From Bacillota bacterium (GTDB taxonomy: Bacteria > Bacillota_A > Clostridia > Lachnospirales > Lachnospiraceae), in NCBI GenBank assembly GCA_023407175.1, contig JAEYMU010000053.1, positions 806,001 through 870,000 on the forward strand: 64,000 nucleotides of DNA, read 5' to 3'. The translations under genes and the position numbers were made by a program. Shown here one piece after another: positions 4,738-37,022 of the stretch; the stretch's first letter is position 1; every line of letters begins with the position of its first letter. The notes below the pieces were generated by a model. It did no database searches and was not told the DNA's origin. It saw only the letters and a list, made by a program, of their open reading frames with translations.

Positions 4738-6435
4738 TCACACTACACCGCTTCGCAGGCTGTCGAACACATTATATACATCTAAAATTCCAAAGCCCCA
4801 GTCCCTGTTTGGATATTCGGCCCCCGTTTCCCTTCTGGCTCCCCTCATGAGCAGCTTATTTATCTCAATGGTACTCATACCAAGCAGATTTTCTCTGGTG
4901 ATCCCCCATTCCAGTATCATAGCTACAATCCCGGAGGTATGGGCCGCTGAGACACTGGTACCGGTAAAGCCGGCAAAGCCCTGCTCCAGAGTCGGACCGG
5001 TGACATCAACCCCAGGCGCCGCAATATTAGGTTTAACCGCACCCGTTCTTGTATAGCCCCTGCTGGAATTAGTATAAAGACTGTTATCCGCATTATTATA
5101 GGCAGTAACTGTAATTGGCACTAATGCATTCCCAAAATCTAAAATCGTTGTATAAGGATCAGAGCGGACAAAAAAAGTATCGGGTGATATAAAATTCTCC
5201 ATCGGCAGCCATATGTGGAAGCCGACATTCAAATCTCCTCTGTCATATACCCGCAATCTCCAGACCCCGACGGAAGGGTTGGAAAACCGCATAATAATCA
5301 ACTGGTCACCGCTTTGACTTTCTACAATTCTATAATCAATATAGATCACCGTCGGTTCAAATATGAAGGTGATCTCCCTGTTTTCATTGCGAAAGCCGGT
5401 TATTCTCGGTATAAACTCTCCGGAGGGAGAGAGGATATCAATCGTCAGTATACTTGGCGATTGCCCCCAAATCTCCATGGAAAAGCCCCTTTCATTTTCC
5501 CCTACATTTAATTCCACCGTATCATAACCGGTCGCAGTACTTACAGTTCCAAAATAGTGCCTTCTTGCGTTGCCTTCATTCCCCGCCGCAATAACCACCC
5601 CGGTCCCTATTCTTGTTGCAATGGTTGACAGATAGCTGCTCGTGAGTCCTCTGCCGTCATGGGAGCTTTGGGAGGTATTGATGGCGATGCACAATACGAC
5701 CGGTTTATCCAGTACGGAGGCTGTATTAAGGACATAATCAAGGGCAAACAGCATATCCGTTTCCTGATAGCACACCGCATTCTCCGGGATGAAGAAGAAA
5801 TCCCGAATTACTTTTTTGGCCTGCTTTAATTTGACCACTACAAATTCCACTCCTGGCGCCACTCCCGAAAAATCACTCTCGGGAACCGAATTCCCTCCTG
5901 CAATCCCTGCTACCATGGTTCCGTGGCCGATTTCATCCCTGCTGGGAACTACGGAAAAGGGATCGGCGCTTTGCAGTGCCTCATTGATTTGTTCCCTGGT
6001 ATACTCCGTACCATAGCCCATGCTGGGCGGAGGAGCGCTTTGTATTGTCTGATCCCACAGAGCCGCTATCCGGGTAGTTTTATCCGCATATTGGAATATG
6101 GGATTGGTATAATCAATTCCTGTATCTATGATACCCATCAGTACCCCCTGTCCTATCAGGTCAAAGTTGGGTATATTGCGCAGTCGAAAGACACCTGAGG
6201 CCTCCAGGCTGGCCTGGCTCACCGGCCCCAGCACGGAAGGAATAAAAGAATAACCATACTGCATGATGGATCCTGACGTAAGATTTTCAGCCGGCACATG
6301 CACGATTGCCGCAATATTATTGATAATATTGATCGGCACATCACCGAAAGCTTCAAGCAAGGCTCTATCACCACGGTATTCAACCAGCAAATCTGCATAA
6401 TTTTCATTGATGATTGGATTTTCTCCCGATGTCAT
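4738..6435 (-). CDS. Csp-like S8 subtilisin-family serine protease, intact triad
   Basis: This 565-residue paralogue of the next gene has the complete triad: Asp104 (GIIDTGIDYT), His171 (EIGHGTMVAG) and Ser494 (FTGTSVSAAH, codon 4954-4956). There is no signal peptide or transmembrane segment. The ~250-residue insert between His and Ser matches the jelly-roll of CspB-type proteases. By family it would process pro-SleC-like cortex lytic enzymes or another spore target; no sleC gene is in this window. A weak sigma-E-like CATAGAAT lies at 6469-6462 upstream. These proteins also occur as multi-copy S8 families in Lachnospiraceae, so a non-germination role is possible. Confidence 0.85.
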   Translation of the reverse strand: MTSGENPIINENYADLLVEYRGDRALLEAFGDVPINIINNIAAIVHVPAENLTSGSIMQYGYSFIPSVLGPVSQASLEASGVFRLRNIPNFDLIGQGVLMGIIDTGIDYTNPIFQYADKTTRIAALWDQTIQSAPPPSMGYGTEYTREQINEALQSADPFSVVPSRDEIGHGTMVAGIAGGNSVPESDFSGVAPGVEFVVVKLKQAKKVIRDFFFIPENAVCYQETDMLFALDYVLNTASVLDKPVVLCIAINTSQSSHDGRGLTSSYLSTIATRIGTGVVIAAGNEGNARRHYFGTVSTATGYDTVELNVGENERGFSMEIWGQSPSILTIDILSPSGEFIPRITGFRNENREITFIFEPTVIYIDYRIVESQSGDQLIIMRFSNPSVGVWRLRVYDRGDLNVGFHIWLPMENFISPDTFFVRSDPYTTILDFGNALVPITVTAYNNADNSLYTNSSRGYTRTGAVKPNIAAPGVDVTGPTLEQGFAGFTGTSVSAAHTSGIVAMILEWGITRENLLGMSTIEINKLLMRGARRETGAEYPNRDWGFGILDVYNVFDSLRSGVV

Positions 6436-23332: not shown

Positions 23333-24388
23333 CTATACCTTCACAAGCTGATAGCCTGCCGCCTTAAGAAGACGGTTCATGATTGCCTGTCCCAAACTAT
23401 TATCCGCAAAGCTTTCACTATAAATATACTGCGTATGCAGTTCGTCAAATTCACGCAGAACGGCGTATAAACCGGCTGCTATGGAGGCCTCGTCTGACCT
23501 GGAGCCAATTGTTTTTACTGTCCCGTAGCGGTACAGCTCCTTTGACTCCTCCGTCGCAATAACTCCCACACTGTTACCGTTCTCCTGATTTTCCTTCGCC
23601 CGAAGGTTTATTTCTTTTGCCACCTGTACGGTCTCACCCTCATAAATCGTAAGACTTCCCTCCGGGGCATAATGCCGGTACTTCATACCTGGTGCCTTTG
23701 GTCTTAGGTTTTTATCCGGATTTTTTGTAAGAATTGCCGGATCATATTCTATACTTCCAATGACATGCTCAAGCATGGCCTTGGTAATACAGCCCGGCCG
23801 CAGTATCATGGGCTTTTCACCGGACAAATCCACAATCGTTGATTCCAGTCCCAGAGTGGCCTGACCTCCATCGATAATCATATCAATTCTTCCGCTTAAA
23901 TCCCCGATTACGTGCTCTGCGATTGTAGGACTCGGTTTTCCGGATATATTTGCACTCGGTGCCGCAATAAAAATACCGGCCTTTAAAATCAGATTCCTCG
24001 CAACCCTATTGGCAGGAAGGCGGATTGCCACTGTATCAAGGCCGCCGGTGGTCTGATAAGGGACACATTCCCTTTTCTTAAGAATAATAGTAAGTGGTCC
24101 CGGCCAGAAAACCTCGGCCAGTCGATATGCCTGCTGAGGAATATCCCTTGCAAGAGCCTCCATATCTTCGGCTCGGGCAATATGGATAATCAACGGATTA
24201 TCAGAGGGCCTGCCTTTTGCTTCATATATTTTTCTGGCGGCATTTTCATCCAGGGCATTCGCCCCAAGACCATATACGGTTTCCGTAGGAAATGCTACCA
24301 GCCCGCCAGCGCGGAGAATTTCTTCCGCTTCCTTAAGGTCAGCTTCCTGTATATCCTTTGCAGCTACTACGATTATCTTTGTATCCAT
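23333..24388 (-). CDS. ywlC: L-threonylcarbamoyladenylate synthase (TsaC/YwlC/Sua5)
   Basis: The 351-residue protein has an N-terminal YrdC/TsaC domain (GGLVAFPTETVYGLGANAL at ~28-46, KGRPSDNPLIIHI at ~58-70, SANISGKPSPT at ~150) and a C-terminal Sua5 domain (~210-350, opening with PGMKYRHYAPEG). It makes threonylcarbamoyl-AMP from Thr, bicarbonate and ATP, the first step of the tRNA t6A37 modification. It heads the group with the phosphatase and rpiB. The length matches the long YwlC form. Confidence 0.95.
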   Translation of the reverse strand: MDTKIIVVAAKDIQEADLKEAEEILRAGGLVAFPTETVYGLGANALDENAARKIYEAKGRPSDNPLIIHIARAEDMEALARDIPQQAYRLAEVFWPGPLTIILKKRECVPYQTTGGLDTVAIRLPANRVARNLILKAGIFIAAPSANISGKPSPTIAEHVIGDLSGRIDMIIDGGQATLGLESTIVDLSGEKPMILRPGCITKAMLEHVIGSIEYDPAILTKNPDKNLRPKAPGMKYRHYAPEGSLTIYEGETVQVAKEINLRAKENQENGNSVGVIATEESKELYRYGTVKTIGSRSDEASIAAGLYAVLREFDELHTQYIYSESFADNSLGQAIMNRLLKAAGYQLVKV

Positions 24389-24580: not shown

Positions 24581-25150
24581 TTATGCAGCTTCCTTTAAAT
24601 TCGTCTTATTGATATACTGCATAATAGCCAGATGAATAGCCCAGGCCATCTTTTCCTGATATTCATCCGTAAGCAACAGCTTCTCTTCATTTGCATTGGA
24701 TAAATAGCCGCATTCCACAATTACCAGAGGACACTGAGTCTTCTTCAGCATATAATAGGAGGAGTTTGATTTGGCTTTCCGGTGGTTTCCGTCTGCAATC
24801 GTCTCCACGATCTGCGTCTGTATGATTTCTGCCAGCTGTTTTCCCTCCTGAGAACCTGCATGATAAAAGACCTGGGCCCCCTTGACATACTCCTCTGTAA
24901 AGCTGTTTTGGTGAATGCTGATGGCCAGATCAGCATTGCTTGAAAGTATCAGGTTGACCCGGTTATCCAGATCGGCTCTCTTTTTGTTCGTATCCTCCTG
25001 CGAATAGAGCCCCTCATCCTCCTCTCTTGTCATAACCACCTTAATATCATTCAGTTCCAGAAGGGACCTAATCTTCAGGGAAACACTAAGATTGATATCC
25101 TTCTCCAGCGCATTGTTTAAGCCCACCTTCCCCGGGTCCCTTCCACCATG
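24581..25150 (-). CDS. cwlD: cwlD 3' segment (split N-acetylmuramoyl-L-alanine amidase gene)
   Basis: This frame encodes residues 52-240 of an amidase_3 enzyme starting at the shared His codon (25148-25150): GHGGRDPGKVG, the Glu of NNALEKDIN, SIHQNS and VIVECGYLSN supply the zinc and catalytic residues. It ends KTNLKEAA. There is no start codon of its own; upstream the frame runs into the 3' end of the GH2 gene as unrelated sequence. CwlD cuts the stem peptide from muramic acid so that muramic-delta-lactam can form in the spore cortex, which germination enzymes require. The missing N-terminus, including the DPGH strand, lies 9.76 kb away at 34908-35063 on the same strand and in matching frame. 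As it stands the gene is interrupted. Confidence 0.93.
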   Translation of the reverse strand, partial: HGGRDPGKVGLNNALEKDINLSVSLKIRSLLELNDIKVVMTREEDEGLYSQEDTNKKRADLDNRVNLILSSNADLAISIHQNSFTEEYVKGAQVFYHAGSQEGKQLAEIIQTQIVETIADGNHRKAKSNSSYYMLKKTQCPLVIVECGYLSNANEEKLLLTDEYQEKMAWAIHLAIMQYINKTNLKEAA

Positions 25151-25178
25151 TCCTGATGCCTCATTCGGACGGGAAAAG
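25122..25178. other. attR-type junction: element left end with cwlD 3' part
   Basis: The core CAT (minus strand, 25150-25148) marks the crossover. On the element side the sequence reads GCATCAGGA before CAT; on the gene side TGGTGGAAGG follows it. An outer arm CTTTTCCCGTCC (25178-25167) mirrors an arm at the other junction. The arm lies inside the last GH2 codons. Confidence 0.75.
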
Positions 25179-27959
25179 CTTTGCCAGCTCCGCCGGACTA
25201 AGCTCCTGCCGGGGGGCAAATTCCCCGGAAGCCATATAGTGAAGAAGACTGTATTCCAGCCACCTTGCAGGAAGGCTGTCCGGAAGATCCGAAAGCTGAA
25301 AGGTACATACGAGCAGCTTGCCCTTACCGACCTTTACTTCGAATAAATTCCCCAATCTGTGGTTTCGTTCAAAATTGTCAATCGTCCATACCACCGGCTC
25401 AAGCTCTGTTTCATCCAGGATTAATGCCCGGGAATTGGAGATCATGTCATACCAGGGCGGCGTAGTATAGGCTTCGGTTTGGTAAACTTCAAATGCCTTA
25501 TGCCCATGCTCAATCAACAATCCAAGGGTTCCGACGGGAACAGGTCTTCCCATACTTTCCGATATAGAACGAAACATCGGATAGCACCAAAAATCCGTAC
25601 AATAGGTTCCGGGAATGGAATTGCTGTCATCCAGGTTCTTAGGATAGTACAACACCTTCCCGCCCTCCTTAAGCAGCCCCTCTGCTTCCCTGAGGCTGCC
25701 GGTTATAAGAATTTCCTTTACTGGCTGTATTTTATTTATCTCCGGGTAAATCCAAATATCATAATGATTTGTAATATCCGTTCCCACTATTTTAAGCTCC
25801 AGAGTAAGCTTCCTTGGAATATCCGTCTTAGGAAGGGTAATATGGAACTCGCCAAGGAAGAATATATCATGATTAAACCGGCCCTGTACTGTGCTTATTT
25901 CGGCAAGCACCGGTATATCCTTCTCCCACAGGGATAATTCCAGCTTCGGATTTATAACAGCCTCCCCTGCAAAGCAGGCAAGGATTGCCTTGATACGAAT
26001 TTCCTCTCCCTCGCAAAATACCAGCTTCGTCAGTTCTGCCAGAAGTACCTGGCCCGAGCAAAACTCCCGCCACTGGGAGGCGGATATTAACCCCTTATTC
26101 TCCAGAAAGGCATTCAAAATTCCCACTAACGCTGTCCCCTGCCCGGTAAAATCCTGAAGGTCAAGTATCTGGAAGCCTGCCAGCTCCCGGCTACGAAGCG
26201 CTGCCTCAAGCTCTGCCTTATACAGCTTTGCTGCCAAGGTCCCGGAGGCCCGAAAGAACCGGTCCTCATATTCCATAAGCCCCTTTTCCCGAAGCCGCTC
26301 ACGGAAAATCTCCAGATTGCGGGGCTTTAACACTCCGGTATATTTGCTTAGCTCCGTATAATCCGGATACATGGCATATTGCCCTATTTCATGGGAAACA
26401 ACCGGAATCCGGGGAATCAGCTCCTTGGAGGCTTCCGCACGGACCGTCTTTGTTCCTGTTCCATACTGGATAACAACCTCTCCTCCCGCCGTATCTGCAT
26501 TTACAACCTCTGTGGGCCGGATGAATTCATCATAATTATGGCTTGCATCGGGAGGCAGCGTCTGTATATGCCCCTGGGGTGCGTCACACATGGCATAGGA
26601 GCCGCGAAACAGCCTGTCCCTGGAGAAGCGTACCCCACAGAAAAAATCTTCATTTTCAAGAATACAGGGCATAAACTGAAAATTATTGGAACCCTGTGTA
26701 TAAAGATGTCTGGGGTCATAGGCCTTATAGCGCCCAAGAATTTCGTTCAACTTATACTGACTTCCCCATAGCTCGTTACCCAGGGACATCATAACAAAGG
26801 AGGGATGATTGCCGAATTGGTCCAGGATACGGAAGCCCTCTGCAATCAGATATTGCTGTGCTGCTTCATCATGATTTTCATCGCCTTCCTCCGTAACTGT
26901 CCCCCAGAAGGGAAGCTCCGGCTCCATGTAGATACCCAGGATATCCGCCGCCGCAAAGGCTGCCTCCGGAGGACAGCAGGTATGAAAACGGTAATGATTA
27001 ATCCCGTATTCCTTCGCTGTTCCCAGCACCTCAAGCCAATCCTCAAGCCCGGTGGGAGCATAGCCGGTCAGAGGAAAGATCAAACCGTCATGCTTTCCAC
27101 GAAGGAAGGTTCTGTTCCCATTTATGGTAAAATAATTACCGTCTGCTATAAACTCTCGCAGACCGAAGGAAAACTCATAGTAATCAGCCTCCGAGCTGTT
27201 TTTTTCTGAATTTGGATACAAGCTGATCCGCAGGGTATAAAGGCTTGGAGAATGCTCGCTCCACAACCTCGCTCCCTCTCCCATCGCATACACAAACTGA
27301 TTCTCTCCGGCGGACAAATTAAGCTCCTGTACAGGGAAGCCCAGTGTCTCATCCGGTACCATTACTGCTGCCGGACAGCTATCCCCTCCGTGAAGCTGCG
27401 CTGTAACCGTAACCAGCTTTCTTTTCGCATCAGGATATAATTTTACTCCCGTTAGGTAAGCTTTATTTCTTACTTCAATATAAATTCCCCCGGTAATACC
27501 GTTCCAGTTCGTCTGTGTATCCGGTGAGGTCATATGGCCTCCCCTGGTCGGATAAGAGGTATTATCTATCATTATAGTAAGCTTATGTCTTGTCTCCTTG
27601 ACAAAGGGGGTAAGCCTGTAGCTGTGTGAGGTGCAAAGGCTGTTATTGCTGCCGACATACTGATCCTCTACCCACACATGTGATATTCTGGTTCTTTCCA
27701 GAAGGAGAAAAAGTTCCTTTCCCTCAGTTCCGGTAAAATCAACCATCCGGGTGTACCAGGTATAGCCTTCAAAAAAATAGGGGTCTGTGAGGAAGCCTGT
27801 CTCTGCCGCCTGTGACGGTATTCCCTTCTTCGCCTCCGATACCGTTGTCGGAAGGCCAATTGAATCCTCATACATCAAATCATACAGCTTATTCTCTATC
27901 CCGGTTTTCTTCTGATCCATGAAAAAGCTCCAGCTTCCTCTTAGGTCTATTCTGTTCAT
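25161..27959 (-). CDS. Glycoside hydrolase family 2 protein (beta-galactosidase/glucuronidase-like)
   Basis: The 932-residue protein has a GH2 sugar-binding jelly roll (~1-190, starting MNRIDLRGSWSFFMD), an immunoglobulin-like domain and a TIM barrel. The acid/base Glu is in MSLGNELWG (~375) and the nucleophile Glu in PVVSHEIGQYA (~490). A long beta-rich C-terminal part follows. There is no signal peptide, so it acts on imported oligosaccharides. ATG 27957-27959 follows GGAGG and opens on the family's usual start; an earlier in-frame ATG at 28031 is less likely. Its stop codon is only 11 bp inside the element end, so the attP arm lies in its last codons and the gene survives excision intact. 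Confidence 0.88.
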   Translation of the reverse strand: MNRIDLRGSWSFFMDQKKTGIENKLYDLMYEDSIGLPTTVSEAKKGIPSQAAETGFLTDPYFFEGYTWYTRMVDFTGTEGKELFLLLERTRISHVWVEDQYVGSNNSLCTSHSYRLTPFVKETRHKLTIMIDNTSYPTRGGHMTSPDTQTNWNGITGGIYIEVRNKAYLTGVKLYPDAKRKLVTVTAQLHGGDSCPAAVMVPDETLGFPVQELNLSAGENQFVYAMGEGARLWSEHSPSLYTLRISLYPNSEKNSSEADYYEFSFGLREFIADGNYFTINGNRTFLRGKHDGLIFPLTGYAPTGLEDWLEVLGTAKEYGINHYRFHTCCPPEAAFAAADILGIYMEPELPFWGTVTEEGDENHDEAAQQYLIAEGFRILDQFGNHPSFVMMSLGNELWGSQYKLNEILGRYKAYDPRHLYTQGSNNFQFMPCILENEDFFCGVRFSRDRLFRGSYAMCDAPQGHIQTLPPDASHNYDEFIRPTEVVNADTAGGEVVIQYGTGTKTVRAEASKELIPRIPVVSHEIGQYAMYPDYTELSKYTGVLKPRNLEIFRERLREKGLMEYEDRFFRASGTLAAKLYKAELEAALRSRELAGFQILDLQDFTGQGTALVGILNAFLENKGLISASQWREFCSGQVLLAELTKLVFCEGEEIRIKAILACFAGEAVINPKLELSLWEKDIPVLAEISTVQGRFNHDIFFLGEFHITLPKTDIPRKLTLELKIVGTDITNHYDIWIYPEINKIQPVKEILITGSLREAEGLLKEGGKVLYYPKNLDDSNSIPGTYCTDFWCYPMFRSISESMGRPVPVGTLGLLIEHGHKAFEVYQTEAYTTPPWYDMISNSRALILDETELEPVVWTIDNFERNHRLGNLFEVKVGKGKLLVCTFQLSDLPDSLPARWLEYSLLHYMASGEFAPRQELSPAELAKLFPSE

Positions 27960-27979
27960 TCCAATCCTCCATGTTTTTC

Positions 27980-27995
27980 GGAGGATTTCTCCTCC
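27980..27995 (-). other. Hairpin with GAAA loop before the GH2 gene
   Basis: On the minus strand GGAGGA-GAAA-TCCTCC forms a perfect 6-bp stem with a GNRA loop, 20 bases before the GH2 start. The stem itself contains a ribosome-site-like GGAGG, and a near copy of the segment (GGAGGAGAAATCTTCCC) lies just upstream. It could affect translation, or be a duplicated leader. Confidence 0.45.
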
Positions 27996-28201
27996 TTGTT
28001 TTTTGGGAAGATTTCTCCTCCATATTTTCATTTCTTTTTCTACACACTTTGCAACTATTTTCTTCCCATATCTTCTAAATTCTTAATTCAAGCAGCCTTT
28101 GGTAATTTTACTACCAGTCTGCTGCCTCTATTATTTTACCTGATATTTGATTGATTTTAAATGTAATTTGACACTTTATTATACTATGTATTTGTCATAT
28201 A

Positions 28202-29863
28202 TTATAGTTTAGGCTCTTCCATAGTAAATAAGGGCTTATACTCCTCCGAGAACTTATAGTTTATGATAATACGGTTATCATGATAAAGATAGATTGTTTC
28301 GATTGCCTCAACCACCATCTCCCTGGTCAGTTTATCCACATACCCCTTTTTTTGCAGGGCTTCTATCCACAGGCACAGTGGGCTGTCCTCTTGCTTTTGT
28401 GCAGAGCTCTCCATTGCAAGCAGCTCATTTCTGGCAGTCTCCTGTTCCGAAAGGTATTTGCTTTTCAATTGTTCATACTTGCTGTCACTCAGTTTTCCGA
28501 GCAGCCACTTTTCCATTGTTCCCTCCTCAAGGGCCTTAAGCCGGCAAAGCTCCTCCTGTTTTACTGCCATCCAGCTTTCTACCGTTCTCCTTTCTCCTCT
28601 GCTGCTTTTTCCCTCCTTATCCCTTGATAATACCTGCTTTAAATCACCGGCCTCTGCTATCACTTTATTCAAATCCTCCAGGATAATTGTCTCCAGGACA
28701 TTTTCATAAATTCTGTTGGCATGGCATCTGCTGTTGTCCTTTTTATGTACCCTGCACTGATAGCTGTAATATCTGCTGTCCTTATATGCTTCCGTATGCC
28801 TGATCATGGCATGCAGGCAATCCCCACATTTTAAGATACCCGAGAATAGCGCCGGATTACCTGGCTTACTCCTGTTTTTAGGAATGGCTCTGTGCAGCCG
28901 GCGCGCCGCCTCGAATTCCTCCCTTGTGATGATGGCCTCGTGGGTGCCGGGAACCTTAATCCAGTCTTCCTCGGAAACCAGGGCGATCTCCTTTCTCTTA
29001 AAATCCTTTGTAAAGGTCCTGTGCTGCACCATAGTTCCCGTGTATTTTTCATCCGATAAAATCCTATTTACCGTATCCGGTGTCCAGTAAGCAGAGGTTC
29101 CAAGCCTGGCTCCGCACCGGTATTTCAGTCCTTTCCTCTCCTTATATACGGCCGGAGGAAGAACTCCCCTCTCATTCAGCCTCTTTGTAATGCCAGCTGC
29201 CCCAAGTCCCTCCATGATATTCATACGAAAGATTTCCCGGACATGACCGCATACCTCCTCATCCACCAGAAGGTGATGCTTGTCATCCGGGTCTTTATTA
29301 TAGCCGTAGGGTGCAAAGGCCCCGATAAATTTGCCGGCACGCATCATACTTTCCATTCCTGTGGTGACCTTGTGGCTCTGGCTTCTGGAATATTCCTCAT
29401 TCAGAAACAGGAGTATTCTTACGCCGATATCCGGTTTGTCCGTTAGACTGTCGTAATGATCGGAATAGGCCACAAAGCGGATTTCATGGTTTTTCCGCTC
29501 AAAGTCCTTCTCCAGATACTGGATGATGCGAATGTAATCCCTGCCAAATCTTGAAAAATCCTTTACAATAATACAGTCTACCCTTCCCTCTTCGACCTCC
29601 TTAAGCATCTGCTTAAAATTCGGGCGGTCAAAGGTAATTCCGGTATAATCATCATCATAATATTCCCCGTATATTTCCACGGAATACCCGTCCTTTGCCT
29701 GATTTAACTGCTCTACGGTGTAATGGAGATAATTTCTCTGGTTCTTAATCGACTCACTCTCCATGAACCTGCTTATCTTACCCCTGTCCTCATCCGAAAG
29801 CCGTCCGTAAAGCCCGGCCATAAAGCAGCGGGGCTTTATTACATTTGTCGGCTTAAATCTCAT
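28202..29863 (-). CDS. Large serine recombinase (site-specific integrase/excisionase)
   Basis: The 553-residue protein has a resolvase catalytic domain (~10-165; nucleophile Ser23 in GLYGRLSDED, plus VKDFSRFGRDYIR), a recombinase domain (~190-300), a zinc ribbon with CGDC and CRVHKKDNSRC (~348-385), and a coiled-coil C-terminal region. All parts are intact, as required for integration or excision. GGAGGGG stands before the ATG. It is the only recombinase in the element and so the likely agent that joins the cwlD halves. It is preceded by a 47-codon ORF and a sigma-E-like promoter. Confidence 0.95.
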   Translation of the reverse strand: MRFKPTNVIKPRCFMAGLYGRLSDEDRGKISRFMESESIKNQRNYLHYTVEQLNQAKDGYSVEIYGEYYDDDYTGITFDRPNFKQMLKEVEEGRVDCIIVKDFSRFGRDYIRIIQYLEKDFERKNHEIRFVAYSDHYDSLTDKPDIGVRILLFLNEEYSRSQSHKVTTGMESMMRAGKFIGAFAPYGYNKDPDDKHHLLVDEEVCGHVREIFRMNIMEGLGAAGITKRLNERGVLPPAVYKERKGLKYRCGARLGTSAYWTPDTVNRILSDEKYTGTMVQHRTFTKDFKRKEIALVSEEDWIKVPGTHEAIITREEFEAARRLHRAIPKNRSKPGNPALFSGILKCGDCLHAMIRHTEAYKDSRYYSYQCRVHKKDNSRCHANRIYENVLETIILEDLNKVIAEAGDLKQVLSRDKEGKSSRGERRTVESWMAVKQEELCRLKALEEGTMEKWLLGKLSDSKYEQLKSKYLSEQETARNELLAMESSAQKQEDSPLCLWIEALQKKGYVDKLTREMVVEAIETIYLYHDNRIIINYKFSEEYKPLFTMEEPKL

Positions 29864-29895
29864 AAAAAATTCCCCTCCTGCTGTCCAATATTATC

Positions 29896-30039
29896 TCAAA
29901 TCCTTTGACTTTCCTTGTCCCGGTACGCCTTAGCCACTCTCGACACATATTCCTCAGGTGTCAGTCTCCCCCGAAAATTGCGGATTACAGTAAATTGCTT
30001 GCCCTTTCGCTGTTTCTTCTTACTTTCCGTCTGTTTCAT
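29896..30039 (-). CDS. 47-residue basic protein upstream of the recombinase
   Basis: ATG 30037-30039 opens a 47-codon frame ending at TGA 29896, 32 bp before the recombinase. The product begins MKQTESKKKQRKGKQFTVI and continues NFRGRLTPEEYVSRVAKAY: a Lys-rich head followed by a short amphipathic helix. Similar small ORFs precede large serine recombinases in other Clostridia. A role as recombination directionality factor is plausible because such factors are small and basic, but nothing in the sequence proves it. The ribosome site is weak. Confidence 0.6.
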   Translation of the reverse strand: MKQTESKKKQRKGKQFTVIRNFRGRLTPEEYVSRVAKAYRDKESQRI

Positions 30040-30147
30040 GCAAACACCATTTTTTCAAGTCTTAATTTATCATACGGGAAAACTCTTTGGCGTATGACAA
30101 ATTGATCAATGCATTTCTTCGCAGGCCTGACTTCATTTTTTTAATGC

Positions 30148-30175
30148 ATTGTATGCATATTTGATGTATAATTTC
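30148..30175 (-). promoter_or_regulatory. Sigma-E-like promoter of the recombinase unit
   Basis: On the minus strand CATACAAT (30155-30148) is an exact match to the mother-cell sigma-E -10 consensus. A partial -35, AGAAATT (30176-30170), lies 14 bases upstream. Transcription would start near 30141, ~100 bases before the 47-codon ORF. A sigma-A-like TATAAT (30167-30172) for the plus-strand cargo overlaps it on the other strand. Confidence 0.5.
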
Positions 30176-30231
30176 TACAGTCCTCATAGCTTACAAATGA
30201 GATGGGAAAGAATCAGAAAAGGAGAAGACAG

Positions 30232-30957
30232 ATGCAATTGATTTTAAATAAAAACCTGGAAGCCTTAAAATCAAATCCATATCCGGGGCGGGGTATCATC
30301 ATCGGAATGACTCCTGACGCTCTAAAAATGGTACAGGTATATTGGATTATGGGAAGAAGTGAAAACAGCCGGAACCGGATTTTTGTTGCAGAGAAGAATA
30401 TGGCGGTTCGTACCCAAGCCTTTGATGAAAGCAAATTAACCGATCCCTCTCTGATTATTTACACCCCGATCCGTTCTCTCGGTACTGTCCATATCGTTTC
30501 CAATGGAGATCAGACCGATACCATATATAACCGGTATGACGGGGGCGGTTCCTTTGAAGAGGCCCTTCGGGAAAGAGAATTTGAGCCGGACGGGCCCAAC
30601 TTTACTCCCAGAATCTCCGGTGTTGTTACGCTTGCAGACCCAAACGGCGCATACAAGCTATCCATTATAAAATCGTTTTATAATTCTTCCAGAACCTGCA
30701 TCCGCAATATCTATCATTATGAAAAAGCGGTTCCTGGAATCGGACATTGCATCACTACATATATGGGTAACGGTGACCCATTACCTTCCTTTGAGGGAGA
30801 GCCTTATATTCTTCCTGTCACAAATGACATCCGGGAGACCCTGGAATTGTATTGGAATTTACTCAGCGAGGATAACCGGGTATCTATTTTGGTAAAGTAT
30901 ATCGATATTCAGACAAACAAGTCAGAGATTGAAATAAAGAATGGGCTTAAAAATTAG
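30232..30957 (+). CDS. IMP cyclohydrolase-like protein (PurO family)
   Basis: The 241-residue protein matches the IMP_cyclohyd family: NPYPGRGIIIGMT near the N-terminus, then QVYWIMGRSENSRNRIF, YTPIRSLGTVHIVSNGDQT and PNFTPRISG. Archaeal PurO closes FAICAR to IMP at the end of purine synthesis; bacterial relatives of this short type are not well characterised. I chose ATG 30232 because AAAGGAG lies seven bases upstream; the longer frame begins at 30202. It heads the plus-strand cargo series. Confidence 0.8.
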   Translation: MQLILNKNLEALKSNPYPGRGIIIGMTPDALKMVQVYWIMGRSENSRNRIFVAEKNMAVRTQAFDESKLTDPSLIIYTPIRSLGTVHIVSNGDQTDTIYNRYDGGGSFEEALREREFEPDGPNFTPRISGVVTLADPNGAYKLSIIKSFYNSSRTCIRNIYHYEKAVPGIGHCITTYMGNGDPLPSFEGEPYILPVTNDIRETLELYWNLLSEDNRVSILVKYIDIQTNKSEIEIKNGLKN

Positions 30958-31024
30958 ATAGAGGGGTATTCCACTCCAAGTAAATTGGAGTTAAGTGCCT
31001 TCTATGGTAAAAAGGAGCGATAAA

Positions 31025-31963
31025 ATGAGCAATCATAAGATGATGCCCAGATTGGATATTCCAATCTGTGAGTTTCCCGAAACCGATGAATTACCGCAGG
31101 GAGTAAAAACCGTAGAACTAAAGGACACTTTCGGCTTTGGCGTAGATTTTCTGCCCAATGTTCCGTACATTAACCGAGGGGGCAGGGACTTAAGTCTGCA
31201 AATACTAATCCCGCAAAGGGAAAAGGAGGGCAAAAGAGAAAAATGTCCTACCATTATTTTTATTCAAGGCTCTGCCTGGCATAAGCAATCCCTGTACGGA
31301 AGCCTCGGCAAGCTGATCAGGATGGCTGAGAAGGGCTACGTTGTGGCAATCGTAGAGTACCGTCCAAGTGAAGACGCTATTTTTCCGGCACAAATAGAAG
31401 ATGCCAAAACAGCTTATAAATTTATGAAAATGAATAGTGAAAAATACTTTGTAGATACTGAAAATATGATTTTCTGGGGTGATTCCAGTGGTGGTCATAC
31501 CGCGTTGATGTGCGGCATTACCTGCAACGACTACCCTATAACAGAAGACTATAAGGAGCAGGAAATAAACCCAAGGTGTATTATCGACTGGTACGGACCT
31601 ACAGAAATCTATGAAATGGCTTGTTACCCAAGCATCTGTGAGCATGACGCCCCGGACTCCCCGGAGGGAATGCTAATTGGCGGACTTAGGCTTTCTGAGA
31701 ACAAGGAGCTTGCCGAAAAAACAAATCCGGCAAAATATCTTAGCAGGGAGAAATCCACACCACCAATTCTTATCATGCATGGAGGGAGCGACGCATTAGT
31801 GCACTTTAATCAGTCCTGCCGCCTGTACGCAAAGCTGAAGGAGCTTAGCAAGGAAGTAGAATTTGTAAAGCTAATCCATGCAAACCATGGATTTTTGGGC
31901 TTTAACTGTGACGAGGCCTTAAATATGGTTTACGAGTTTATAAAGAAACATTATGCAAAATAA
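31025..31963 (+). CDS. Alpha/beta-hydrolase (HSL/BD-FAE-like esterase)
   Basis: The 312-residue protein contains the nucleophile elbow WGDSSGGHTAL (~Ser157), an acid in MHGGSDALVHF (~250) and a His in HANHGFLGF (~290). The oxyanion-hole region, usually HGG, reads FIQGSAWHK. It would hydrolyse small carboxylic esters or acetylated sugars, fitting the glycosidase in the same element. GGAG seven bases before ATG 31025 decides the start. It ends 17 bp before the nitroreductase gene. Confidence 0.85.
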   Translation: MSNHKMMPRLDIPICEFPETDELPQGVKTVELKDTFGFGVDFLPNVPYINRGGRDLSLQILIPQREKEGKREKCPTIIFIQGSAWHKQSLYGSLGKLIRMAEKGYVVAIVEYRPSEDAIFPAQIEDAKTAYKFMKMNSEKYFVDTENMIFWGDSSGGHTALMCGITCNDYPITEDYKEQEINPRCIIDWYGPTEIYEMACYPSICEHDAPDSPEGMLIGGLRLSENKELAEKTNPAKYLSREKSTPPILIMHGGSDALVHFNQSCRLYAKLKELSKEVEFVKLIHANHGFLGFNCDEALNMVYEFIKKHYAK

Positions 31964-31980
31964 GCAAAGGAGCATGTAAA

Positions 31981-32544
31981 ATGAATGAAACATTGAAAGT
32001 AATAGCTGAGCGGTATTCCTGCCGCGATTATAAAGATGAGATGCCGTCGGATGAAATCCTCCAGGCAATCGCTGAAGCCGCCATACAGGCTCCAAGCGGG
32101 ATGAACCGCCAGGCATGGCGGGTTATTGTTGTAAAAGACAGGGCTTTGATGCAGGACATGGAAGCTGAAGGATTATCCTTTCTTGCGAGCATGGAGGATA
32201 AATCCTCCTATAACAGAATTATGGAACGCGGAGGACGGTTGTTCTACGGTGCTCCTTGTATGATTGTAGTCCCGATTGATCCGACCCAATATGGCCCTGC
32301 TCTGATCGACTGTGGTATCCTATGCCAGAATATCACTCTCTCTGCAACCTCTCTGGGAATAGCCAATATTATGTGCGGCTTTGCCGGACTGGCATTTGCC
32401 AGCGGCCTTCGCTCTGAGGAATTCAGCAAACGATTAGGTTTTCCGGAAGGCTATGCCTTTGGCTGCTCCGTGTTGTTAGGATACGCAAACACAACAAAAC
32501 CGCCCCATGTTCCAGACAAAGATAAAATCACCTTCATTGGATGA
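31981..32544 (+). CDS. Nitroreductase-family FMN oxidoreductase
   Basis: The 187-residue protein has the FMN-binding signature RYSCRDYKDEMPSDE (residues ~11-25), the PSGMNRQAWR loop and the C-terminal GYANTTKPPHVPDKDKITFIG. Such proteins reduce nitro compounds, quinones or flavins with NAD(P)H; the physiological substrate is unknown. Its stop codon overlaps the open frame of the following HIT gene by four bases, though the chosen HIT start is 20 bp further on. Confidence 0.9.
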   Translation: MNETLKVIAERYSCRDYKDEMPSDEILQAIAEAAIQAPSGMNRQAWRVIVVKDRALMQDMEAEGLSFLASMEDKSSYNRIMERGGRLFYGAPCMIVVPIDPTQYGPALIDCGILCQNITLSATSLGIANIMCGFAGLAFASGLRSEEFSKRLGFPEGYAFGCSVLLGYANTTKPPHVPDKDKITFIG

Positions 32545-32564
32545 AGAGGAAGGCAGGTAAACAT

Positions 32565-33020
32565 ATGGGGTGTCTGATCTGCGAAAGAATTGATATGATT
32601 AAGAAGGGGATTAATCCTTATTTTGTGAAGGAGCTGGATACCGGCTATGTCGTTATCGGCGACCATCAGTATTTCAAAGGTTATACTTTATTCCTGTGCA
32701 AAAAGCATTCCACAGAGCTTCACTTTTTGCCAAAGGAATATCGAATGAAATATCTGGAGGAAATGTCCCTGGTTGCTGAGGCGGTTTATCATGCTTTTAA
32801 GCCGGAAAAGCTGAATTATGAATTGTTAGGTAACGGTGATTCACATATCCATTGGCATCTGTTTCCAAGAACAGCCGGGGATATTCCTGTAAAGGGTCCA
32901 GTCTGGTGGCTGCCGGCAGAGGAGATGTTCAATGACGCCAACCGCCCAACAGAAGCAGAACTGGAGGCCATGAAGCAGGCGCTCAGCCAGGAAATCGAAA
33001 AGCTGTTACCATCTGCATAG
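32565..33020 (+). CDS. HIT-family hydrolase/transferase
   Basis: The 151-residue protein begins MGCLICERIDMI and carries the histidine triad SHIHWHLFPR (~100), the nucleotide-binding and catalytic site of HIT phosphoramidases and nucleotidyl hydrolases. I chose ATG 32565 because AGGAAGGCAGG is correctly spaced and the family's N-terminal Cys pair begins there. It is co-directional and closely packed with the nitroreductase gene. Confidence 0.9.
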   Translation: MGCLICERIDMIKKGINPYFVKELDTGYVVIGDHQYFKGYTLFLCKKHSTELHFLPKEYRMKYLEEMSLVAEAVYHAFKPEKLNYELLGNGDSHIHWHLFPRTAGDIPVKGPVWWLPAEEMFNDANRPTEAELEAMKQALSQEIEKLLPSA

Positions 33021-33155
33021 ATTTTGTCTGTATAAAAATCTGTAGCCAAAATATCAAGAACAGACTCCTTCTCCATGATATATTATGGGTAACACCAAAG
33101 AGCCGGAATAAAAGGTATAAAAACTGTAAACCACGTATCGGAATGGGGGATATCC

Positions 33156-33965
33156 ATGAAGCAGCTGGGATATTTGGCAGAAGCACTGGAGTATATTGAA
33201 AATAATATCTGTGAAGACATCACCGCGGAAGATGTCGCCAACGCCTGCTATTATTCAAAGTCAGGACTTCAGAAAATATTTAAATATGTCTATGATTGCA
33301 GTATCAAGGAATATGTCATTCATCGCAGGATTACCAAGGCCGCAAGAGATTTGGTAATTCACCCCGGGGAAAATGTGTTGGACATTGCACTGAGATACTG
33401 CTATAGCTCCCATGAAGCCTTTACCCGTGCTTTTGAACAGGTGTGGCACTGTAAACCGTCTGTATTTCGCAGGCAGGCCAGATTTACAGACATACACCCC
33501 AGGCTCTTGTTGCCTGTGGAGAATGGAGACAGCTATATGAAGGAAAGAAAACCTGTGGACATTACCGAATTATATGATTTATTTAAAGAAAGAAAGGAAT
33601 GCTATTTTGTATGCTGTGACATCAAATCACTGGGTCCTATCAATGAAATATCCCGTAAAGCCGGTGATCTTGCCATATTGGAAGTAATAAGACGTATGGA
33701 AAAAGCCGCTGGGGAGGAGGATTTGGTTTTCCGTATCGGAGGCGACGAATTTGTTCTTCTCACCGATCACAGTGATGCCACCTACGCCAGGGACGTGGCA
33801 GACAGAATATCCATCCAAAACGGAGAGACTATTATTTACGAAGGAACAGAAATACCGTTACGCGTACATACTGCTATCACCAGATTTGGCGGTGATAATT
33901 TAAAATATGATGAGCTGTTTGTATCCTTGCACCATTCCTTAAAGGATTGCAAAATATATGATTAA
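33156..33965 (+). CDS. AraC-type regulator fused to a GGDEF domain
   Basis: The 269-residue protein has two AraC helix-turn-helix units (~5-105, with DVANACYYSKSGLQKIFKYV and ALRYCYSSHEAFTRAFEQVW) followed by a short C-terminal domain (~140-265) holding an intact GGDEF motif (FRIGGDEFVLL, ~190). This joins DNA binding to a diguanylate-cyclase-like or cyclic-nucleotide-sensing module in one chain. GGDEF domains are ~160 residues; this one is shorter, so catalysis is uncertain. It stands alone 135 bp after the HIT gene and may control element genes. Confidence 0.8.
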   Translation: MKQLGYLAEALEYIENNICEDITAEDVANACYYSKSGLQKIFKYVYDCSIKEYVIHRRITKAARDLVIHPGENVLDIALRYCYSSHEAFTRAFEQVWHCKPSVFRRQARFTDIHPRLLLPVENGDSYMKERKPVDITELYDLFKERKECYFVCCDIKSLGPINEISRKAGDLAILEVIRRMEKAAGEEDLVFRIGGDEFVLLTDHSDATYARDVADRISIQNGETIIYEGTEIPLRVHTAITRFGGDNLKYDELFVSLHHSLKDCKIYD

Positions 33966-33985
33966 GAAAAAACAATTGTAACCCG

Positions 33986-34027
33986 TTTCCGGCAAAAAGC
34001 ATAGGACTTTCTATCTTTTGCCGGAAA
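33986..34027. terminator. Inverted repeat after the AraC-GGDEF gene
   Basis: TTTCCGGCAAAA (33986-33997) pairs with TTTTGCCGGAAA (34016-34027) around an 18-base loop. There is no T tract on either strand, so it may be a weak terminator or an operator between the regulator and ATPase genes. Confidence 0.45.
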
Positions 34028-34061
34028 ATCTGTTACAAAATCTTTGGACAGAGGTAGTCAC

Positions 34062-34805
34062 ATGGATGAAAAATTCATCAGAGGAATCCGAATTGACTGG
34101 AATAAAATCAGCAATCACTGCTATGTCAGGAATATTCCCTCTATTAGAGCGATAAGGCAGCTTGAGTTTAAAAGCAATCTTGTCTTTTTTGTAGGGGAAA
34201 ACGGGACAGGAAAATCAACTCTGCTGGAAAGTATCGCAGTAGCATATGGCTTTAATCCTGAGGGCGGGAACAGAAACTTTAATTTTTCCACCATGGATAC
34301 CCACTCCGAACTGCATCAGGCTATCACTGTAATCAAAGGTGTCTTAAGACCAAGGAGTAATTTCTTTCTCCGGGCGGAAAGCTTTTATAATGTTGCTACC
34401 AAGGTCGAGGATTACCGGGGCGGGGACGATTATCAGGCATACTACGACAGCTACGGCGGCAAGTCCCTGCACGATCAATCCCACGGAGAAAGCTTCCTGG
34501 CATTAATGCAAAACCGTTTTAAGGCCAGGGGCCTCTATATTCTGGATGAGCCGGAAGCTGCTCTGTCCCCCCAAAGACAGCTAACCCTGCTTATGCTACT
34601 ATACAATCTGGCCAAGGAGAGAGCCCAGTTTATTATTGCAAGTCATTCGCCGATTTTGCTTGGAATTCCGGGAGCCTCCATCCTGTCCTTTGACCATGGA
34701 GAGCCTTACGAAATTGCCTACGAAGAGACCGAGAGCTATAAAACTACGGAACTGTTTATTAACAGCCGGCAGCTTCTTCTTAACAATCTGCTTAACCAGA
34801 AGTAA
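34062..34805 (+). CDS. AAA/SMC-like ATPase
   Basis: The 247-residue protein has Walker A FVGENGTGKST (~46-56), an ABC-like signature SHGESFLAL (~142), Walker B GLYILDEPEAAL (~160) and the H-loop ASHSPILL (~190). It lacks transmembrane or known DNA-processing fusion domains, so it belongs to the predicted stand-alone ATPases seen in many Clostridia, function unknown. A TTG at 34044 would extend the frame, but ATG 34062 has GAGGT upstream. It is the last gene before the element's right end. Confidence 0.85.
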   Translation: MDEKFIRGIRIDWNKISNHCYVRNIPSIRAIRQLEFKSNLVFFVGENGTGKSTLLESIAVAYGFNPEGGNRNFNFSTMDTHSELHQAITVIKGVLRPRSNFFLRAESFYNVATKVEDYRGGDDYQAYYDSYGGKSLHDQSHGESFLALMQNRFKARGLYILDEPEAALSPQRQLTLLMLLYNLAKERAQFIIASHSPILLGIPGASILSFDHGEPYEIAYEETESYKTTELFINSRQLLLNNLLNQK

Positions 34806-34820
34806 TTCTCTTTTACACCC

Positions 34821-34883
34821 CTGCATATCACAAGCTTGCATGTGATATGCAGCAATAAACAGTTTGAAAGTACCTTTCAAACT
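34821..34883. repeat. Two tandem hairpins at the element's right end
   Basis: CTGCATATCACA (34821-34832) pairs with TGTGATATGCAG (34841-34852). Nine bases on, AGTTTGAAAG (34861-34870) pairs with CTTTCAAACT (34874-34883). They lie between the last cargo gene and the attachment arm. The first may end transcription of the ATPase gene; the second touches the arm. Confidence 0.6.
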
Positions 34884-34940
34884 TTCCCCTCCCATACAGG
34901 TACGAGGATGACCTGGATCAATCACAATTACAATTTGTTT
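34882..34940. other. attL-type junction: cwlD 5' part with element right end
   Basis: The core CAT (minus strand, 34910-34908) follows GATCCAGGT on the gene side and leads to CCTCGTACC on the element side. The outer arm on the plus strand, CTTTCCCCTCCC (34882-34893), matches 9 of 12 bases with the arm at 25178-25167 in inverted order, as expected for the two halves of one attP. Confidence 0.75.
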
Positions 34941-35063
34941 TTCTCCGCTTCCTGCTTTCGTTGATACCAGAATATGCTCTATCATTCTCGCCGATTGGTC
35001 CGAGGTAAATAATGCCGCAGCCAGAATTAGTACGAGAAAAATTATACTGAAATACTTTTTCAT
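34908..35063 (-). CDS. cwlD: cwlD 5' segment (N-terminus of split amidase)
   Basis: ATG 35061-35063 starts a protein with a hydrophobic anchor (YFSIIFLVLILAAALFTS, residues ~4-21), a linker and IVIVIDPGH, the first strand and first zinc His (residue 52) of an amidase_3 enzyme. After that codon the frame enters the element (PRTCMGGES...) and resembles no amidase. The rest of the enzyme continues in the same frame at 25147. Joined, 52 + 188 residues give 240, the normal CwlD length. The start at 35063 rather than 35090 fits the predicted sporulation promoter, whose start site lies downstream of 35090, and AAGGGG precedes it. Confidence 0.92.
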
Positions 35064-35226: not shown

Positions 35227-36927
35227 CTAATTCAAATATTTGATAATCACATTCCAGATGCTTTCCGATTCCAGCCCAAGCTTCCAGGCAGCACAGCCGG
35301 CAACGCCCGCATCATAGATCACCTTCATTTTTTCTTCGATGGATTTATCCTCCTCCTGCCACATACGATAGGTTGCACCATCCTGCGCCAGCTCCGCATA
35401 ATAACAGCCGGTTTCCTCGTCCCACTTGGCCTCAATACCATTATTCACTATCCACTCCTTCGCCGGAGTCATGGCCAGATTTTCCGAGGTTACCGTGCCA
35501 TCCTCCGCTTCCTTCCAGAGTCTTGTATAAAAGGGAATGGCTATGATTGTCTTTTCCTTCGGGACCATCGCAAGTATATTGTCCACAGCATCCTTAACAA
35601 AGCCGATGGAGGAAACAGGCCCCGCCACCTCGGCATAATATTCATCATATGCCATAATAATCACATAATCAACAATTTTGCCCTGTTCCTCTCTGTCATA
35701 ATACTCGGTATATTCGGAGGGAACATAATTATCGATGGAAAGTACAATCCCGTTGTTTCTGCATTTTACCGATAATTCACGGATAAACTGAATATAATCC
35801 TCTCCCGCATCGGAGGGAATTTTCTCAAAATCAATATTGATACCGTTCAGCTTGTAGGTTAAGGCCGCTTCAATCAATGCGTTCGATAAAGTATCCCTGT
35901 TGGAGGTATGGGAAAAAAGCTCCTTCTTATCTACATCCTTACTAAAATCATTCACCAGTGCCCAGACCTCAAGTCCCAGGCTCGTGGCCTTATCCACATA
36001 TTCCTTGGTAGCCAGGGACGTGATATTACCGGATACATCACTGATTGTAAACCAGGTCGGTGATATGACATTAACGCCCTTCGTTGCCCCGATCAGACCA
36101 TCCAGATTATTGACTGCATCCACATTAAACACCTGATGGAATACCAGATTTATTTTCTCCGTTCTGGCCTGTGAGGTGTACACCGGTGCCTGATAGGTGC
36201 TTTCCAGTGTCTCATACCCGGCCTTTGTCAATGATTTCTTCTTGATATAACCCTTGATACCGTCAGTGGTCATTACCTTGACAAAGCCGTTCTTCGGTGT
36301 TTCATCCGTATCGACATATTGTAATTTCGTGCCTGGCGTCAGCTCCAGCAGTATCGGGCTCTTGATGTTTGGTTCATAGCGGAGCTGAGTCTGCTTGCTT
36401 ACCTCGGAATACAGATAATCTCCCCAGATATAATTCACAACAATCCGGCTCGGTTTCTCATAATACTCATAGGTCATATCTGAATATTGTTCCACAAAAT
36501 CAAGTGCAACATAAACCTGATCTGCAAACACCTCAACAATCGGATAATCCGACTCCACCTTGGTTTCTATCGTACTTTTGGTTACACTGTATACCTCCTG
36601 ATCCGCCTCCGCCCGCAATATCTCGGTGGGCGTTGTATAGGTAAGTATATTTTCATTAGCATCCCAGTAAAAACGCTGGTTGAATTTCTCTACGATAGTA
36701 TCATAATCTATATATACCCTGTCATTGATTAACAGGCCCTTTTTCTCATAGCCTTCGTTTTGAAGAATAACGTAAACCTCACCATCCCCAACCTTGTAAT
36801 AGTCGGTAAGCTCCATTATTTCCTTACTTGGAGTCAGACTCTTTATCAATACTGAAATCAGGGCTATTGCAATAATAATAATTCCGACTGCCGAGCCAAT
36901 AATAGCTAATCTAATTCTCCTATTCAT
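35227..36927 (-). CDS. GH18 family hydrolase with SH3 domain (YaaH/SleL-like)
   Basis: The 566-residue protein has an N-terminal membrane helix (~6-28), a beta-rich domain resembling the copper-amine-oxidase N-terminal fold (~40-160), a bacterial SH3 domain (~175-235) and a GH18 barrel whose catalytic Glu368 is in NGINIDFEKI. Relatives such as YaaH/SleL are spore peptidoglycan glucosaminidases, so this product probably cuts cortex or wall glycans. ATG 36927 follows GGAGGTAATC; the longer frame to 36990 is unlikely. It sits directly upstream of cwlD, giving a cortex-related pair. Confidence 0.88.
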   Translation of the reverse strand: MNRRIRLAIIGSAVGIIIIAIALISVLIKSLTPSKEIMELTDYYKVGDGEVYVILQNEGYEKKGLLINDRVYIDYDTIVEKFNQRFYWDANENILTYTTPTEILRAEADQEVYSVTKSTIETKVESDYPIVEVFADQVYVALDFVEQYSDMTYEYYEKPSRIVVNYIWGDYLYSEVSKQTQLRYEPNIKSPILLELTPGTKLQYVDTDETPKNGFVKVMTTDGIKGYIKKKSLTKAGYETLESTYQAPVYTSQARTEKINLVFHQVFNVDAVNNLDGLIGATKGVNVISPTWFTISDVSGNITSLATKEYVDKATSLGLEVWALVNDFSKDVDKKELFSHTSNRDTLSNALIEAALTYKLNGINIDFEKIPSDAGEDYIQFIRELSVKCRNNGIVLSIDNYVPSEYTEYYDREEQGKIVDYVIIMAYDEYYAEVAGPVSSIGFVKDAVDNILAMVPKEKTIIAIPFYTRLWKEAEDGTVTSENLAMTPAKEWIVNNGIEAKWDEETGCYYAELAQDGATYRMWQEEDKSIEEKMKVIYDAGVAGCAAWKLGLESESIWNVIIKYLN

Positions 36928-37022
36928 GATTACCTCCTGGTGGTTTTCCACCTCTTTTCCCATTATAGCATTAATCCAGGCTACCGTCATTACTAAAATT
37001 CGACTTTTTCATAAATAATAAC

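What the first reader, a model, noticed from the sequence alone, without database searches (positions are those of the whole stretch)
24581..35063. cwlD is split by a 9.76-kb recombinase-bearing element: a skin-like developmental switch in a germination gene
Seen: 34908-35063 encodes the anchor and IVIVIDPGH of an amidase, then degenerates. 25150-24581 encodes GHGGRDPGKVG to the C-terminus, then degenerates upstream. Both are on the minus strand, and the same His codon (CAT) is at 34910-34908 and 25150-25148. Joining there gives 240 residues in frame, the normal CwlD size. The interval holds one intact large serine recombinase. Known: sigK (skin) and some other sporulation genes of Bacillus and Clostridia are rejoined in the mother cell by serine recombinases; cwlD works in cortex synthesis in the sporangium. 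Inference: this is a skin-type element in cwlD, which I do not recall being described.
Basis: partly seen in the sequence, partly recalled or inferred. Interest (0 to 1): 0.96.

Follow-up and report, generated by a model that had tools for sequence, protein, structure and literature searches.

The report
Recombinase element splitting germination gene cwlD
The germination gene cwlD is cut in two here, exactly at the codon for a histidine that by alignment is its zinc ligand, by a 9.76-kb element carrying its own recombinase, which is predicted to cut the element out and rebuild the gene, likely during spore formation; the same gene is cut at the same codon in 13 other genomes that were examined.

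Summary
Confirmed: cwlD is split at a His codon (34910-34908 / 25150-25148) by 9,760 bp; the halves join in frame to 240 aa. The nearest relative found (G733) has the same neighbours, an intact cwlD (76%) and none of the insert there. The element's two ends form an imperfect palindrome centred on the CA of that codon (17 of 25 positions pair; 0 of 5000 random arm pairs do as well), as expected of a large-serine-recombinase attachment site. New: it is no one-off. cwlD is split at the same codon in 13 other genomes (8 of 223 with a cwlD hit in a family sample, 5 more in two genera), by elements of 1.9 to 18.6 kb where both ends are known; all five such pairs, window included, join in frame. Two recombinase clades do it, and related recombinases split a pdaB-like deacetylase and another amidase at conserved active-site motifs. 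A small ORF upstream of the recombinase recurs (candidate directionality factor). Best reading: a sporulation-gene-intervening element of the skin/gin type in a gene for which my searches found no such report. Excision and its timing are untested; recent horizontal movement, one recombinase-less insert and one remnant argue for caution.

The parts
34908..35063 (-). cwlD N-part: start codon, membrane anchor, IVIVIDPGH
24581..25150 (-). cwlD C-part from the His codon (HGGRDPG) to the stop
25151..34910 (.). inserted element, 9,760 bp counting one copy of the CA crossover dinucleotide
   Evidence: length and symmetry; absent from the empty-site relative
25151..25182 (-). element-side arm next to the C-part (attR side)
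34877..34908 (-). element-side arm next to the N-part (attL side), inverted repeat of the other arm
28202..29863 (-). large serine recombinase, 553 aa
29896..30039 (-). 47-aa ORF just upstream of the recombinase; candidate directionality factor (inferred)
30148..30155 (-). CATACAAT, sigma-E-like -10 upstream of the small ORF (weak; consensus recalled)
25161..28031 (-). cargo: glycoside hydrolase family 2 (exo-beta-galactosidase-like), stop 10 bp from the His codon
30202..30957 (+). cargo: IMP cyclohydrolase-like
30995..31963 (+). cargo: BD-FAE esterase
31981..32544 (+). cargo: nitroreductase family
32541..33020 (+). cargo: HIT domain
33156..33965 (+). cargo: AraC-type HTH with GGDEF-like part
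34044..34805 (+). cargo: AAA ATPase
35227..36990 (-). host flank: GH18/SH3 protein, 79% identical neighbour in G733
23333..24388 (-). host flank: Sua5-type threonylcarbamoyl-AMP synthase, 79% identical neighbour in G733

Best explanation
A 9.76-kb integrative element sits in cwlD at the His codon of its DPGHGG motif, between palindromic arms centred on that codon, and its own large serine recombinase is predicted to excise it and rebuild an in-frame 240-aa CwlD, likely in the mother cell during sporulation. Shown by sequence: the split, both open halves, the intact recombinase, the symmetry of the ends, the empty site in a relative, and the same split in 13 other genomes. Inferred: that this recombinase uses these sites, that the small upstream ORF is its directionality factor, and that excision is timed to sporulation. 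On this model the forespore keeps the element and only the mother cell, which dies, loses it; if excision failed, spores would form but would be expected to germinate poorly.
For: Split and frame. Empty site with conserved neighbours in G733. Dyad symmetry 17 of 25 centred on CA, 0 of 5000 random pairs as good, best other shift 10; four other elements peak at the same centre or, G494, one base off, more weakly (11-14 of 25, p 0.001-0.03). Recurrence: 8 of 223 genomes with a CwlD hit among 348 searched, plus 4 in the genus of G540 (44 of 47 with a hit) and 1 in the genus of G499 (11 of 11). In 5 of 5 elements with both ends in hand the halves join in frame. Intact recombinase in 10 of the 13. 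One CwlD-grade hit per split genome at the thresholds used. SpoIVA found in the 8 family-sample genomes. Small ORF shared. Nearest full-length solved recombinase is SprA/YokA of SPbeta, whose excision rebuilds spsM during sporulation (PMC4191935, passages).
Against: No excised junction or circle seen; pattern for the circle junction found nothing in viral contigs. No reads. Sigma-E-like promoter p=0.02 in one of 25 regions and 3 consensus types scanned, and not matched upstream of the other recombinases. 0 split cwlD seen in the window's nearest genus sample (34 genomes). The element of G782/G779 moved recently between hosts, so open halves may only mean recent insertion; window v. G733 synonymous sites are saturated. 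G494's insert has no recombinase that I could see and G563 keeps only a remnant. A second cwlD in the window's genome is untested.
Confidence: 0.6

Rival explanations
1. A mobile element with cwlD as its attB that excises at low, unregulated frequency. It is tolerated because cwlD is needed only for germination; there is no developmental control.
For: G782 and G779 share a recombinase at 97.8% (dS 0.06) while cwlD C-parts are 86.7% (dS 0.99) and Sua5 87.2% (dS 0.67) identical: recent horizontal entry at the same codon. Metabolic cargo. Weak promoter evidence.
Against: Integration repeatedly in sporulation-type wall genes (cwlD, pdaB-like, another amidase: 16 of 30 recombinase loci) is hard to understand without rescue of the gene; no second cwlD in split genomes at the thresholds used.
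Confidence: 0.24
2. A dead or dying insertion: cwlD was inactivated and the strain lost efficient germination or sporulation.
For: G563 remnant recombinase, G494 insert without a recombinase; synonymous saturation means no test of selection after insertion in the window.
Against: Intact recombinase and both halves open in the window; 9 of 9 C-parts and 4 of 4 N-parts examined are open with the HGG, EK.(I/L)NL and S(I/V)HQNS motifs (the VE.G(F/Y)L pattern fails only in G530); a 98% identical C-part in 3 further contigs (P0058).
Confidence: 0.14
3. Assembly chimera joining unrelated DNA into cwlD.
For: Contig of unknown origin; no reads.
Against: Halves in order and orientation with syntenic flanks; palindromic ends; same architecture in other genomes, once within 1.9 kb; the recombinase P0001 is listed in 3 contigs.
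Confidence: 0.01

Closest known systems
skin element in sigK (B. subtilis, C. difficile)
   Same: Recombinase element splitting a sporulation gene, frame rebuilt by precise excision (PMC4191935 and PMC10747680, passages).
   Different: Different gene; no phage genes among the cargo ORFs tested; excision here untested.
gin element in gerE (B. cereus ATCC10987)
   Same: Non-phage element with serine recombinase in a sporulation gene, with an extra factor (GirX) needed for excision (PMC5595907, passages).
   Different: 28.6 kb with three recombinases and a 9-bp repeat there; one recombinase and a 2-bp common centre (CA) here.
SPbeta in spsM (SprA/SprB)
   Same: Large serine recombinase; SprA/YokA is the best full-length solved-structure hit (9dxh, 8.5e-13).
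   Different: SPbeta is an active prophage; the window's element is 9.76 kb with metabolic cargo.
yin element in yabG (C. botulinum V73)
   Same: Element in a sporulation gene of an anaerobe, found integrated and excised (PMC10747680, passages).
   Different: Prophage-like and described as unique to one strain; cwlD splits recur in 13 other genomes here.
Tn4451-type TnpX recombinase elements
   Same: Best solved-structure hit is the TnpX N-terminal domain (2mhc, 1.7e-16).
   Different: Not tied to a developmental gene (recalled).

Membership tests
sporulation-gene-intervening elements (skin/gin type) | splits a sporulation gene; halves in one orientation and in frame when joined | tested here: met
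sporulation-gene-intervening elements (skin/gin type) | carries an intact serine recombinase | tested here: met
   invariant residues shared with relatives
sporulation-gene-intervening elements (skin/gin type) | attachment sites with short common core and inverted arms at the gene junctions | tested here: met
sporulation-gene-intervening elements (skin/gin type) | directionality factor encoded in the element | tested here: inconclusive
   small ORF conserved beside related recombinases; no family match that is secure
sporulation-gene-intervening elements (skin/gin type) | recombinase or directionality factor under a sporulation sigma factor | tested here: inconclusive
   p=0.02 before correction; consensus recalled
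sporulation-gene-intervening elements (skin/gin type) | excision during sporulation rebuilds the gene | not testable with these tools
   no reads, no culture
prophage-like intervening elements (narrower group) | phage genes in the element | tested here: not met
   no phage family among the cargo ORFs scanned
CwlD (TIGR02883) | score above the curated cut-off (221.55) | tested here: inconclusive
   joined 218.1; intact relative P0056 213.4
large serine recombinases | Resolvase, Recombinase and zinc-ribbon domains | tested here: met

The most novel reading that the evidence does not exclude
A widespread class of recombinase elements uses active-site codons of sporulation wall enzymes (the cwlD zinc-ligand His, the FDAAW motif of a pdaB-like deacetylase, a second amidase) as attachment sites and turns spore germinability into a DNA-rearrangement switch; a recombinase, a small partner protein and 1.9 kb are enough, and cargo rides along because only the doomed mother cell loses it.
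Probability: 0.38. Interest if true: 0.88.

Novelty: new variant of a known kind. Interest (0 to 1): 0.74.

Why it matters
The passages I read list only sigK, spsM, spoVFB, spoVR, gerE and yabG as rearranged sporulation genes. A recurrent cwlD site, with related elements in a pdaB-like and another amidase gene, would mean that cortex chemistry and germination are gated by DNA excision in many more spore-formers, would explain genomes in which cwlD looks broken, and gives a simple two-clade set of recombinases with a defined site in a conserved gene to test.

Tried and rejected
Genome-contig scan with the recombinase: one distant relative (37%, L001), with no cwlD among its ORFs as listed. Viral-contig scan with A1: 80 loci kept at 29-35% identity, not followed. 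Circle-junction pattern: no match in viral contigs. dN/dS: window v. G733 saturated at synonymous sites; G782 v. G779 is no test of selection in the split state because the element arrived separately; G499 v. G811 has recombinase dS 0.89 against cwlD dS 1.96, also unclear. Pfam and PHROGs give no secure family for the small ORFs. Promoter scan not significant over all regions. 'All splits are working switches' was dropped because of G494 and G563. GH2 cargo is not a genus gene: 4 of 34 genomes have a match at 1e-30, one of them at 55%.

Papers: passages only of PMC5595907, PMC10747680, PMC4191935, PMC8496864; every other paper was seen only in search listings. That cwlD or deacetylase cases are not in print rests in an open-licence library that lacks most subscription journals. 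Sigma-factor consensus sequences and TnpX biology are recalled.
Full report
Check of the observation. The N-part runs from the ATG at 35063 to the His codon at 34910-34908, the C-part from the His codon at 25150-25148 to the stop at 24581. Joined at the His codon they give 240 aa without a stop. The C-part matches Amidase_3 and the CwlD model. The joined protein scores 218.1 bits against a cut-off of 221.55; an intact relative scores 213.4. The best solved chain is a germination-specific amidase, 7rag_B, whose GHGG aligns with ours (that it is the C. difficile protein is recalled). In C. difficile CwlD, His49 and Glu65 bind zinc and were mutated with effect (PMC8496864, passages); that our His is the same residue is inferred from the motif and alignment.

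Empty site. No whole genome is held for the window. Named hits to the joined protein are Mobilitalea, Herbinix and Lachnospiraceae. In the genus of G638, 34 genomes were searched; 31 have a CwlD-grade hit, and none is seen split at the His codon, though partial hits in G735, G755 and G759 were not examined. The nearest, G733 (76%), has the same neighbours (GH18 79%, Sua5 79%, LMW-PTP 87%, RpiB 83%), and tblastn finds none of the seven cargo genes nor the recombinase in its 20-kb stretch. So 9,760 bp were inserted.

The attachment site. The two arms inside the element, next to the CA of the His codon, are inverted repeats: 17 of 25 positions pair against 6.4 expected, 0 of 5000 random arm pairs do as well, and shifting the centre by 1-4 bases gives at most 10. 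Four other elements with both ends in hand are weaker but similar: G422 11 (p 0.03), G499 12 (0.016), G494 13 (0.006; 14 one base off), G789 14 (0.001). This is what a large serine recombinase attP is expected to look like and puts the crossover on the CA of the codon.

Recurrence. 348 genomes of the family of G203 were searched with the joined protein; 223 have a hit at 1e-30, and the 74 weakest were listed again. Eight have a C-part starting at HGG behind foreign DNA: G656, G563, G296, G499, G422, G530, G494, G540. In the genus of G540 (44 of 47 with a hit) G789, G782, G779 and G766 are split too; in the genus of G499 (11 of 11) G811. That makes 13 genomes beside the window. Hits cut by contig ends (such as G484, G441, G787) were not counted. 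An earlier sample of 391 genomes of the class listed only hits at 1e-50 and was not used for a rate. Both halves are in hand for G422 (1,904 bp: recombinase and small ORFs), G499 (3,092 bp), G494 (6,584 bp), G789 (18,647 bp: recombinase, proteins of 2,610 and 2,200 aa) and the window; they join in frame to 225, 256, 233, 333 and 240 aa. An intact recombinase lies in or at the element in 10 of the 13: G656, G499, G530, G296, G540, G422, G811, G782, G779, G789. G766 has one cut by the contig end, G563 a remnant, G494 none among the ORFs listed. Each split genome has one CwlD-grade hit at the thresholds used (1e-30, 1e-15 or 1e-25; G296 has a second, 33% identical amidase). SpoIVA was found in all 11 genomes asked, 8 of them the family-sample splits, G494 in two pieces below the cut-off; among 14 control genomes only B. 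subtilis rings.

Two clades and other targets. A tree of 48 recombinases puts the cwlD splitters in two supported clades, one with the window, G656 and G499, one with G530, G296, G540 and G422; one truncated row (G447) has a very long branch, and most database rows have no known context. One search returned 30 recombinase loci. Six abut a cwlD C-part, two another Amidase_3 gene cut at HGG (G529, G609), and eight a pdaB-like deacetylase cut in its FDAAW-GNEDT motif (G419, G417, G557, G407, G646, G447, G496, G726): 16 of 30. Both halves were seen for G419, G646 and G496; the others show one half, and for G726 no N-part was found within 15.5 kb. The PdaB model is the best hit for the two C-parts tested, with 145 and 150 bits on partial sequences, under its cut-off of 237.4. 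In L133, L135 and L137 no split sporulation gene was recognised; the remaining 11 were checked only for cwlD and the deacetylase motif.

Small partner. A 47-aa ORF (29896-30039) precedes the recombinase. Similar ORFs precede those of G499, G656 and G422 (pairwise scores reached by 0-6 of 1000 shuffles). In 22 of the 30 loci scanned for it, 14 of 14 loci of the second clade and its kin have one (score 43-80) and 8 of 8 others do not (22-32); this second step had no shuffle control. I take it as a candidate directionality factor; no database family supports or denies that.

Movement. G782 and G779 have recombinases 97.8% identical (dS 0.06), while their cwlD C-parts are 86.7% (dS 0.99) and Sua5 87.2% (dS 0.67) identical. 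So the element entered at least one of them recently and hit the same codon. That shows site preference and mobility, and it weakens any argument from intact halves. G540 has an intact sister, G806, with a C-part 91% identical.

How it likely works. Integration at the CA of the His codon splits cwlD, which vegetative cells would not need. During sporulation the recombinase, probably with the small ORF, would excise the element and restore cwlD. If this happens in the mother cell, as described for skin, vfbin and SPbeta (PMC4191935, passages), the germ line keeps the element. In C. difficile CwlD is modelled as crossing mother-cell-derived membranes (PMC8496864), which fits. A perfect sigma-E-like -10 lies upstream of the small ORF (p 0.02), but over 25 regions and 3 consensus types this is not significant.

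Other copies of this element. The protein set has a 99% recombinase (P0002), a 98% identical C-part without N-part (P0058, 3 contigs) and an 84% C-part starting MLGHGG (P0119); among the 120 listed of 374 hits no full-length copy exceeds 75%.

Print. Passages name sigK, spsM, spoVFB, spoVR, gerE and yabG as split genes. Nine searches found no cwlD or deacetylase case; the library lacks most subscription papers.

Verdict. Real, site-specific and recurrent; most likely a sporulation-gene-intervening element in a new gene, with excision untested.

Noticed in passing
L189 (G419), L184 (G646), L186 (G496), L132/L167 (G417), L134/L188 (G557), L138 (G407), L141/L185 (G447), L143/L187 (G726): Related recombinases split a pdaB-like polysaccharide deacetylase gene in its FDAAW-GNEDT motif; both halves seen in three of the eight.
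   Followed up: partly
L163:7359-7379 (G529), L140:3253-4047 (G609): Another Amidase_3 gene, not CwlD-grade, is cut at the same HGG motif next to a recombinase of the same or related clade.
   Followed up: partly
L160:1267-7866 (G494): A 6.6-kb insert in cwlD with esterase-like genes, an AraC-type regulator and a sensor kinase/response regulator but no recombinase seen: a frozen split or one that depends on a recombinase elsewhere.
   Followed up: partly
L239 and L243 (G789): An 18.6-kb cwlD element carries two very large proteins (2,610 and 2,200 aa) and an antisense recombinase at the N-part side.
   Followed up: partly
L116, about 5406-5455 (G656): Element end beside the cwlD C-part holds GATACCGACCTTTCC, an exact inverted copy of cwlD sequence 16 bp to the other side of the junction; not centred on the crossover.
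   Followed up: no
L156:14450-16250 (G422): In the 1.9-kb element the recombinase frame runs on through the junction into cwlD, so excision would change the recombinase's own C-terminus.
   Followed up: no
window 18390-20648 (+): 752-aa protein with many Thr/Pro/Gly repeats (GTSTTPGIPG type), no Pfam family.
   Followed up: no
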